Positions 43,125-44,418 of a stretch of 64,000 bases of DNA are shown in pieces. The notes beneath the pieces were generated by a model. It did no database searches, had not been told where the DNA came from, and saw nothing but the letters and a program-made list of their open reading frames with translations. Origin of the DNA: Pseudomonadota bacterium (GTDB lineage Bacteria; Pseudomonadota; Gammaproteobacteria; Burkholderiales; Burkholderiaceae); assembly GCA_963205525.1 (NCBI GenBank), contig CAUJJP010000217.1, forward strand, positions 1 through 64,000, in the 5' to 3' direction. Each line of letters starts with the position of its first letter. Positions within the stretch are counted from its first letter, which is position 1. A program made the position numbers and the translations under genes.

Positions 43125-44282
43125 TCAGAACTGCAGCGTCAGGGTGAGGCCGGCGGCCCAGCCGGGATCGCGGCGCACGCTGTCGCTGGCGCGCGGCCAG
43201 AAGTGGCCGACCAGCAGCTCGCCGACCAGCCAGTCGGCGTGCAGCGGTTGCTGCCAGCGCAGCTGCAGGCCGTAGTCGGTGAGGCCGACCCCGGTGTGCT
43301 GTTCGGCGGTGCCGAGGATCTCGATCGCAAGCTGGCGCTGCGAGCCGAAGCTGCGGTAGGCGCCGGCTATGCTGGCCACCGCGAGCTGCCGGACAGCCTG
43401 GGTCACGGTGGCCGAGACCAGCCAGCGCAGCGCCAGGTCGGGCTGCAGCGCACGCTCCATCGACACCGCGGTGGTCGAACCGAGGTGGTCGTCCACGGTC
43501 CAGAAGAAGGTCTGCCGAAGCTCGGCCAGGGCCCGCTCGCCCAGCACCAGCGGTTGACGAAAGCGCAGCTGCGCATAGGGCTTGATGCCGCTGCGCAAGC
43601 CCACACGCAGGTCCGTCGCCTCGAGCAACTGCACCCCGATGCCGGCAAAGAAGTGGGTGTCCTCGGTGTCTTCGTGCTGCAGCCGCTGCGGCCGGGTGAA
43701 GGCTCCCGGCTGGTCGCTGACGACCTCGCGCGGGTCATCGCGGCCGACGAAAAAATAGCTGCGTTCCTGCAGGTTGGGCAGGCGAAAGCGCGCGTTGAAG
43801 CGCAACGATGCGCTGTCGTCGCCGGGCGGCCGGTGCAGCAGGGAAAGCGCCAGCCGGCCCTCGGTGACGCTGCCGCCGTCGGCGAAGGGTTTGTCGCCGA
43901 ACCAGCTGTCCACCCCGCGCGCAAGCCACAAGGCGGTCTCGCGCACGCGCTCGCGCAGGACTGCGGCTTCGGTCTCGGGGCTGGGAGTCTGGGCGGCAGA
44001 AGGCGTCGAAGCGAAAAGCGGCCCCGGCGAGGACAGTTTTTCTCGGGTTTGCGGCCCCATAGCCGTCGCTATGGGGCAAGAAACCGAGGAAAAATGGCCC
44101 GTCGCGGCCACTTTGCAGCCGACGTATCTTCTGCTGCCCAGACTCCTTGATACGAGAGCAGATTCGACCCGCCTCTCAGTGCCGGCCTGCACGCCGGCCT
44201 CGGCGGCCACGTGTGCGGGCAGCGCGACCGCCATCGCCGCGCACGCGAGGCGCGCCAGGCGTGGGAGCAGCACCGGGGCCAT
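43125..44282 (-). CDS. Outer-membrane protein (beta-barrel type), gene carrying an in-frame palindromic insertion
   Basis: 385 residues. A signal peptide (MAPVLLPRLARLACAAMAVA...) starts it. Residues about 46-100 are coded by a 163-bp palindrome and look foreign (Ser/Arg/Gly-rich, two Cys). The remaining 285 residues have the pattern of a porin-like barrel: alternating strands such as LRFNARFRLPNLQ, THFFAGIGVQLLEATDLRVGL, RWLVSATVTQAVRQLAVASI and the C-terminal LTLTLQF ending in Phe. I do not recognise the exact family. The ATG at 44282 was chosen because it starts the signal peptide. The gene is convergent with the EamA gene and divergent from thioredoxin. Confidence 0.7.
   Translation of the reverse strand: MAPVLLPRLARLACAAMAVALPAHVAAEAGVQAGTERRVESALVSRSLGSRRYVGCKVAATGHFSSVSCPIATAMGPQTREKLSSPGPLFASTPSAAQTPSPETEAAVLRERVRETALWLARGVDSWFGDKPFADGGSVTEGRLALSLLHRPPGDDSASLRFNARFRLPNLQERSYFFVGRDDPREVVSDQPGAFTRPQRLQHEDTEDTHFFAGIGVQLLEATDLRVGLRSGIKPYAQLRFRQPLVLGERALAELRQTFFWTVDDHLGSTTAVSMERALQPDLALRWLVSATVTQAVRQLAVASIAGAYRSFGSQRQLAIEILGTAEQHTGVGLTDYGLQLRWQQPLHADWLVGELLVGHFWPRASDSVRRDPGWAAGLTLTLQF
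43984..44146. mobile_element. 163-bp imperfect palindrome inserted in frame in the outer-membrane protein gene
   Basis: Arms of about 80 bp pair over the whole length with few mismatches and short gaps. The outer ends match GGAGTCTGGGC...GCCCAGACTCC; the centre is CCCCATAGC-cgtc-GCTATGGGG; the middle has TTTTTCTCGG against CCGAGGAAAAA. Neither reading strand has a stop in the gene's frame, so the host gene stays open. Size and symmetry are like ERIC-type or MITE elements. Target-site duplications could not be defined by eye. I saw no second copy in the window. Confidence 0.75.
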
Positions 44283-44344
44283 GGCGCATGTTCGCACACG
44301 CCGCGGCAGCCACCCCGCGGGCGGCTGCCGCCGGGCCAGCGGCC

Positions 44345-44379: not shown

Positions 44380-44418
44380 ATGAATCAGCCCGCGTGCGCG
44401 ACCGCGACCCGCGCATGA
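44380..44418 (+). CDS. Possible 12-residue leader peptide overlapping the thioredoxin start
   Basis: The ATG at 44380 has a GGAG-like site before it and reads MNQPACATATRA, then stops at TGA, which overlaps the next ATG at 44415 (ATGA). It could couple translation of the downstream gene. Its existence as a product is not shown. Confidence 0.35.
   Translation: MNQPACATATRA

What the first reader, a model, noticed from the sequence alone, without database searches (positions are those of the whole stretch)
43984..44146. 163-bp palindromic element inserted in frame in an outer-membrane protein gene
Two arms of about 80 bp pair across the full length, and the element sits between the signal peptide and the barrel part of the protein without breaking the frame. 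It adds about 55 residues (46-100). Its size and symmetry are like ERIC or MITE elements, but I do not recognise this sequence. In-frame palindromes that add coding sequence are known mainly from Rickettsia (RPE).
Basis: partly seen in the sequence, partly recalled or inferred. Interest (0 to 1): 0.8.

Follow-up and report, generated by a model that had tools for sequence, protein, structure and literature searches.

The report
In-frame palindromic MITE of IS1182 transposons
The palindrome is one copy of a short mobile DNA family that shares its ends with a known transposon family (IS1182) and, because it adds exactly 55 codons without a stop, can sit inside genes without breaking them; in one relative it sits inside many conserved genes.

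Summary
43985-44145 is a near-complete palindrome (fold z -11.6) in an outer-membrane protein gene; listed homologues lack it, and taking out 165 bp leaves an intact frame. It is one copy of a 161-bp family found in 48 of 399 genomes of the family of Rubrivivax albus, with tens of copies in some. Its ends match IS1182-family insertion sequences, so it is most likely a MITE moved in trans. It inserts at CTAG with a 4-bp duplication: net +165 bp = 55 codons. Only two of six frames are usually open, and they fit the two phases in which CTAG can occur inside a gene. In Extensimonas sp. H3M7-6 copies lie in frame inside dapF, glmS, pdxA (twice), sua5, dnaX and others; 53 database proteins, about 36 domain types, carry the encoded peptide. 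Near-identical orthologues with and without the insert show recent movement. It works like the Rickettsia palindromic elements, in other hosts and with a transposase family named. The arms covary strongly; why the hairpin is kept is open. Against: most copies lie outside long ORFs, the window's own frame was found in no other database protein, and translation and transposition are not shown.

The parts
43985..44145 (.). 161-bp core of the palindromic MITE (GAGTCTGG...CCAGACTC)
   Evidence: Fold z -11.6; full-length relatives at up to 91% identity elsewhere; core length 161 in 89 of 99 copies that the end pattern picked out
43981..43984 (.). left 4-bp flank CTGG, probably a decayed target-site copy (family consensus CTAG)
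   Evidence: 71 of 99 copies have CTAG on both sides; non-CTAG direct duplications in L071, L252, L254; letters
44146..44149 (.). right 4-bp flank CTTG, probably a decayed target-site copy; differs from the left flank at one base
43985..44002 (+). terminal inverted repeat GAGTCTGGGCGGCAGAAG; its first part is shared with the ends of IS-sized IS1182-like elements
   Evidence: L173, L175, L176, L180
44128..44145 (-). terminal inverted repeat, other end (CTTCTGCTGCCCAGACTC on the + strand)
44055..44076 (.). apical hairpin CCCCATAGC-CGTC-GCTATGGGG
   Evidence: apical helix 98.1% of cells paired in 36 family representatives
43125..44282 (-). host gene, outer-membrane beta-barrel protein of 385 aa (ORF could start at 44381)
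44202..44282 (-). signal peptide (MAPVLLPRLARLACAAMAVALPAHVAA); cleavage site inferred by eye
   Evidence: sequence; helix 6-19 in the model
43983..44147 (-). 55 codons contributed by the element, residues 46-100, frame B1 (RSLGSRRYVGCKV...SAAQTP)
   Evidence: no helix or strand at residues 20-101, pLDDT under 50 at 20-81, means 52 and 73 at 81-90 and 91-100
43131..43871 (-). beta-barrel part, residues 138-384
   Evidence: AlphaFold2 model, strands between 138 and 384

Best explanation
The palindrome is a non-autonomous transposable element (MITE). Step 1 (inferred from shared ends): an IS1182-family transposase made elsewhere in the cell recognises the ~20-bp terminal repeats and moves the element. 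Step 2 (shown by flanks and by filled/empty orthologues): it goes into CTAG or a near match and duplicates the 4 bp, a net gain of 165 bp = 55 codons. Step 3 (shown by sequence): CTAG can occur inside a gene only in codon phase 0 or 1, since phase 2 reads TAG; the element is open in one orientation for phase 0 (frame A0) and in the other for phase 1 (frame B1), so about half of insertions into genic CTAGs should leave the gene open. Step 4 (inferred): the ribosome reads through and makes a protein with a 55-residue, probably unstructured insert; insertions in loops or linkers survive, closed-frame insertions into needed genes are lost. In the window it sits in frame B1 between signal peptide and barrel of an outer-membrane protein, where it should do little harm. 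The hairpin is kept by selection or by copying between arms (covariation shown, reason not).
For: Family: 48 of 399 genomes match at E<=1e-3, 34 of them over 100 bp or more; 26 of 87 in one genus at 1e-6; G457 has 40 scored places of 107 candidates. Ends: four units of 1512-1555 bp with CTAGGAG[TC]CTG[CG]GCGGCAGA at both ends around an IS1182-like transposase homologue, longest frames 467, 440, 376 and 284 aa, so one or two intact and the others decayed; two 1534-bp copies in G136 with the other end type, transposase 383.8 bits to NF033551 IS1182, cut-off 270. Target: 71 of 99 copies CTAG/CTAG, 3 direct non-CTAG duplications, a fourth in L283. Net length: 90 of 104 end-paired copies 165, 97 of 104 a multiple of 3. 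Frames: A0 and B1 open in 48 of 52 G136 copies each, the other four in 0, 1, 4 and 5. In-gene: Pfam or PDB matches on both sides of, or across, the insert in a GDSL lipase, DnaX, GlmS, PdxA (two inserts), Sua5, DapF, a cystathionine-lyase relative, TauE and LysE. dapF has a single locus in that genome. Peptide A0 in 53 proteins, 44 of them internal. Sua5 and PdxA orthologues 95-97% identical differ by exactly 55 or 62 residues at the insert.
Against: Insertion sites are depleted in long ORFs (>=250 codons: 34% of 93 sites, 77% of 1860 control positions), so most copies are intergenic. The window's own frame, B1, was found in no other database protein (1 of 18 candidates, itself). The window's flanks are not an exact duplication. 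One database DapF (P0143) carries the peptide and then loses the DapF sequence. Codon-position counts show no amino-acid-level selection on the insert. 7 of 104 copies have a net length not divisible by 3. The length statistics come from patterns that demand well-kept ends, so decayed copies are left out. The window's own genome is not held, so no IS partner was seen there.
Confidence: 0.86

Rival explanations
1. The segment is an ordinary, if odd, native part of this outer-membrane protein, and the palindrome is a by-product of GC-rich coding sequence.
For: The N-terminal linker of this protein family varies in length and sequence (16 homologues read).
Against: The same 163 bp occurs at up to 91% identity at unrelated sites in other genomes; of 120 listed homologues only the window's own entry carries it; fold z -11.6.
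Confidence: 0.01
2. A REP/BIME-like or ERIC-like intergenic repeat not moved by a DDE transposase (for example moved by a RAYT), which only by accident lies in open frames.
For: Mostly intergenic; strong stem-loop.
Against: Ends and CTAG target shared with IS1182-like elements; 4-bp direct duplications; frames A0 and B1 open in 29 and 30 of 36 divergent copies, where a neutral simulation at 20% change gives about 0.36 (the rows are related, so this is not a formal test).
Confidence: 0.06
3. The insert is removed after transcription: RNA excision at the hairpin, or ribosome bypass from the duplicated CUA codon at one end to the CUA at the other, so that the proteins carry no insert.
For: Conserved hairpin with covariation (37 of 58 pairs changed on both sides); the A strand folds better than its complement in 36 of 36 representatives, and G-U departures outnumber A-C ones 61 cells to 14 (the structure was derived on this strand, which favours it); in frame A0 the duplication gives the codon CTA on both sides.
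Against: Lengths in multiples of three and stop-free frames would not be needed; in the closed-frame pieces scanned no Pfam domain was cut by a closed-frame copy; no stop after the take-off codon as in T4 gene 60 (recalled, from no call).
Confidence: 0.04
4. The insertions in conserved genes are pseudogenes or assembly chimeras of a decaying genome.
For: P0143 DapF loses its sequence after the insert; contigs of G457 often end at the repeat.
Against: The genes are otherwise open over their length; dapF has one locus in G136; the same RimM and NAD(P)H-hydrate dehydratase inserts occur in two database clusters each; H3M7-6 is a cultured isolate (passages of PMC11936349).
Confidence: 0.05

Closest known systems
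Rickettsia palindromic elements (RPE), 105-146 bp (passages of PMC2229807, and PMC10969869)
   Same: Palindromic, about the same size, an encoded peptide, found in frame inside conserved protein genes and also between genes
   Different: Other hosts (relatives of Rubrivivax and Extensimonas); ends tied to IS1182; 4-bp CTAG target duplication, which PMC2229807 lists as '?' for RPE; two open frames fitted to the two phases of CTAG. RPE sequences were not compared.
IS1182-family MITEs of Methanosarcina acetivorans, 160 and 169 bp, partner ISMac2 (one table passage of PMC3852290)
   Same: Partner transposase family, length, inverted repeats of 25-26 bp, direct repeats of 4 or 0
   Different: Archaeal; the passage seen says nothing on in-frame gene insertion. 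Sequences were not compared.
Correia/NEMIS 107-bp species, ERIC/RU-1, YPAL/RU-2 (passages of PMC2229807)
   Same: Short mobile hairpins with open frames that are in places fused to genes, some conserved
   Different: Other hosts; 5'-TA-3' termini listed for Correia and ERIC. Sequences were not compared.
Coding palindromes of Nematomorpha mitochondria (abstract of PMC6649704)
   Same: Long inverted repeats inside translated genes
   Different: There both arms encode conserved native sequence; here the palindrome is an inserted mobile element

Membership tests
MITE (non-autonomous DNA transposon) | Short, no transposase, terminal inverted repeats | tested here: met
   161-bp core, inverted ends
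MITE (non-autonomous DNA transposon) | Dispersed, many copies at unrelated sites | tested here: met
MITE (non-autonomous DNA transposon) | Target-site duplication | tested here: met
   4 bp: CTAG in 71 of 99; direct CAAG, CGAG, CCAG and CTTG; exact gain of 55 or 62 residues against near-identical orthologues. The window copy itself is inexact (CTGG/CTTG)
IS1182-derived MITE | Ends shared with an IS1182-family element | tested here: met
   NCBIfam was run only on the G136 transposase, the window-type ones were reached by homology through the fragment in L165
IS1182-derived MITE | Moved in trans by that transposase | not testable with these tools
   needs an assay
Rickettsia palindromic elements | In frame in conserved protein genes | tested here: met
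Rickettsia palindromic elements | Sequence kinship with RPE families, rickettsial host | not tested
   RPE sequences were not compared and no rickettsial genome was searched
REP/RAYT palindromes | GTAG or CGTC tag at one end (title in the listing, PMC3733652) | tested here: not met
   Both ends are CTAG, symmetric and shared with a DDE-type IS
ERIC | 127-bp enterobacterial consensus | not tested
   no sequence comparison; length differs (161 bp core here)

The most novel reading that the evidence does not exclude
In frame A0 the 4-bp duplication places the same codon, CUA, on both sides of a very stable mRNA hairpin. The ribosome could hop from one CUA to the other (or the hairpin RNA could be excised), so that proteins such as DapF or GlmS are made without the 55 residues; the element would then be a mobile, genome-wide bacterial counterpart of programmed translational bypassing, with the open frame as a safety net.
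Probability: 0.04. Interest if true: 0.95.

Novelty: new variant of a known kind. Interest (0 to 1): 0.76.

Why it matters
How palindromic elements enter protein genes without killing the cell is best known from Rickettsia, where the passages I read name no transposase. Here is an independent case in culturable, free-living bacteria with a named transposase family, a defined target and a simple frame rule. That makes it testable how a transposon gets into needed genes, whether the inserts are translated and tolerated, and whether mobile DNA seeds new protein segments.

Tried and rejected
Rfam gave only matches below the gathering scores. Plasmid and phage collections: the window element gave only short chance-level matches; against plasmids another copy and a typed end gave none. 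I first expected an IS5-type partner because of the CTAG target; the transposase scores as IS1182. The pattern showed no IS-sized pair in G300 or G201, and it cannot match the second end type, so its zero in G263 and G136 means nothing. R. albus, which has a relative of the host gene, has no full copy, only chance-level matches of at most 39 bp. An empty site for the window's own gene could not be shown at DNA level: the nearest relatives' linkers do not align, and in the 87 genomes the four with hits matched mainly through the element's peptide. Long spanning ORFs without Pfam support (for example L193) were not counted as genes; L024 (MoeA wholly downstream of the element) was dropped. The closed-frame Pfam test used 20 pieces from 10 loci; short pieces of L133, L141, L148, L282 and L283 and other frames of L138, L139, L269, L272, L284, L290 and L291 were not tested. 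L282 looked like a closed-frame break but is a short copy in frame, net 75 bp. Amino-acid selection by codon position was looked for and not seen. Papers: the searches showed no description of this family; they cover only the held open-access library, and of the hits I read an abstract (PMC6649704) or passages (PMC10969869, PMC11936349, PMC2229807, PMC3852290) only.

Full report
What is there. The stretch 43984-44146 folds end to end with -110.4 kcal/mol, better than all 200 dinucleotide shuffles (z -11.6). Its arms pair over about 80 bp with a few small bulges. It lies in a minus-strand gene whose likely start is 44282 (385 aa). One search found 437 homologues and listed 120; a BLAST of the 55-residue segment against these 120 finds it only in the window's own database entry, P0001, whose annotated start lies inside the element, plus one weak hit at E 0.011. 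Removing the 161-bp core and one 4-bp flank gives ...VESALVSSPETEAAVLRERVRETALW..., in frame. An AlphaFold2 model on 46 sequences has strands between residues 138 and 384 and a helix at 6-19; residues 20-101 have no helix or strand, with pLDDT under 50 at 20-81 and block means of 52 and 73 for 81-100.

It is a family. No whole genome is held for the window, so I worked from relatives. In the family of Rubrivivax albus 48 of 399 genomes hold a match at E<=1e-3; only two candidates per genome were scored, 34 of the 48 have a match of 100 bp or more and 14 only shorter ones. In one genus 26 of 87 genomes match at 1e-6, the best copy at 91%. G457 has 40 scored places among 107 candidates. A class-level search with another subtype, that of G136, found 3 of 369 genomes, G136 included; the query differs, so this only suggests that the family is concentrated near these relatives. 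Alignments show two end types, GAG[TCG]CTG[GC]GCGGCAGAAG (the window's) and GAGCCTGTCGGACTTGG, around a shared interior, and a third interior in a few copies.

Target and length. Among 99 distinct copies picked by their ends the core is 161 bp in 89, and 71 have CTAG on both sides. Of the other 28, three have the same non-CTAG tetramer on both sides (CAAG, CGAG, CCAG) and one an inverted pair; a fourth direct pair, CTTG, is in L283. So CTAG is mostly a duplicated target, and the net gain is 165 bp. By a stricter count of end pairs 90 of 104 copies are net 165 and 97 of 104 a multiple of three (75, 102, 165, 186, 204); 7 are not (89, 163, 164, 166). Both counts leave out decayed copies. The window's own flanks, CTGG and CTTG, are not identical and suggest an old insertion. 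CTAG is rare in this window: 11 seen, 166 expected from base composition.

The transposase. In G136 two 1534-bp elements begin and end with CTAGCAGCCTGTCGGACTT. The 452-aa transposase of one scores 383.8 bits to NCBIfam IS1182 (cut-off 270) and matches Pfam DDE_Tnp_1. A remnant in G206 has the window's end type beside an IS1182-like fragment. A search with that fragment hit 11 of 399 genomes at E<=1e-50. Of its 17 fetched loci four, in three genomes, have CTAGGAG[TC]CTG[CG]GCGGCAGA at both ends of a 1512-1555 bp unit; the longest frames inside are 467, 440, 376 and 284 aa, so the last two at least look decayed. The partner family is therefore IS1182 for both end types. That its transposase moves the short element is inferred. 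IS1182 MITEs of 160 and 169 bp are on record in Methanosarcina acetivorans (one passage of PMC3852290).

In-frame life. Of 52 G136 copies, frames A0 and B1 are open in 48 each, the other four frames in 0, 1, 4 and 5. CTAG inside a gene can stand only in codon phase 0 or 1, because phase 2 reads TAG; A0 and B1 are the frames met at phases 0 and 1. Across 36 representatives (of 53) A0 is open in 29 and B1 in 30; a simple neutral simulation gives about 0.36 at 20% change, but the rows are related, so this is an indication and no test. I scanned 42 translations of open spanning ORFs, several of them alternative frames of one locus. Matches on both sides of, or across, the insert were found for a GDSL lipase in G457 (target CGAG) and, in G136, for DnaX, GlmS, PdxA with two inserts, Sua5, DapF, a cystathionine-lyase relative (L271), TauE and LysE. 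A sodium-solute symporter (L143) has two Pfam stretches, but its PDB match after the insert is weak (E 0.094). L282 has NTP_transf_3 cut at a short copy (net 75) and stays open for the rest of what reads like GlmU (name by eye). About fifteen other loci have a domain on one side only and are weaker (for example Mur ligase, PfkB, DegT, Prs). dapF has one locus in G136. In the table of 26 insert cases in 25 genes, strong and weak together, 22 stand in phase 0 with the A0 peptide, three in phase 1 (window, L298, L147) and one, the GDSL lipase, in phase 2 with CTCG flanks; only open ORFs were chosen, so this describes and does not test. As a check, 20 pieces from closed-frame joined ORFs of 10 loci were scanned: five loci had a domain essentially whole on one side (MCP, aldo-keto reductase, YjgF, RuvC, EamA), one was cut (L282, in fact in frame), and four gave no domain.

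Database proteins. The A0 peptide, searched as residues 246-304 of the DapF reading, gives 53 proteins of 90 candidates in a database of 5.8 billion. By my count 48 carry Pfam domains of 36 kinds; named or domain-typed ones include TsaD, RimM, a GidB methyltransferase, SerB, an Mpl ligase, a KDO transferase and a sulfate adenylyltransferase subunit. In 44 of 53 the peptide is internal, in 5 near the N end, in 4 near the C end. Nine names say Extensimonas, the other organism names are Burkholderiaceae or Pseudomonadota MAGs. Contig lengths 529358 and 140759 with the name Extensimonas sp. H3M7-6 identify G136 as that strain, an isolate from polluted soil described as E. soli (passages of PMC11936349; the words 'transpos' and 'insertion' do not occur in its main text). 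Sua5 of G136 and P0155 are 94.7% identical where they align; one has 62 extra residues at 147, the other 55 at 262. PdxA of G136 has two inserts, P0123 (96.5%) only the second. This shows recent movement. Against the reading: DapF P0143 loses its sequence after the insert, and the window's own frame B1 found only itself among 18 candidates.

The hairpin. On 36 representatives the 58 pairs are formed in 96.9% of cells; 37 pairs have changes on both sides (shuffles 17.6), and sliding the partner by 1-3 columns drops pairing to 30-45%. The interior covaries as well as the ends, which a transposase-binding site alone does not explain; hairpin-templated correction or selection on structure would. 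The A strand folds better than its complement in 36 of 36, but the structure was derived on that strand. Differences by codon position of A0 (in-gene 23, 47, 53; other G136 copies 31, 71, 61; window type 63, 99, 55) give no sign of amino-acid selection.

Where it sits. Sites are depleted in long ORFs: joined ORFs of 250 codons or more at 34% of 93 sites, against 77% of 1860 control positions. The family is mainly intergenic, with a gene-borne minority that is large in H3M7-6.

Verdict. This is most likely a MITE of IS1182-family transposons that works like the Rickettsia palindromic elements: in frame, stop-free, and present in conserved genes. It is a new variant of a known kind. Literature searches that showed no description of it. 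RPE facts come from passages of PMC2229807 and PMC10969869; the original RPE papers were not read.

Noticed in passing
P0143 (database protein): A dapF reading with the A0 peptide at residue 188 that loses the DapF sequence afterwards: a broken gene or a chimeric contig.
   Followed up: partly
L165:1236-3183: IS1182 transposase remnant with the window-type end, apparently followed by an intruding IS5-like transposase gene (named by eye).
   Followed up: no
L133:1129-2827: An IS1182 copy inserted exactly at the CTAG edge of a MITE copy, so the two lie side by side.
   Followed up: no
L109, L117, L125 (net 204); L282, L291 (net 75); L122 (net 102); L292 (net 186): Length variants of the element, all multiples of three.
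   Followed up: partly
L058, L053, L209: A third interior type with the same ends but different, still pairing, middle arms.
   Followed up: partly
window 1-64000: CTAG is strongly under-represented (11 seen, about 166 expected from base composition).
   Followed up: partly
window 44303-44331: A 13-bp hairpin (92% complementary, 3-nt loop) just upstream of the likely host gene start.
   Followed up: no
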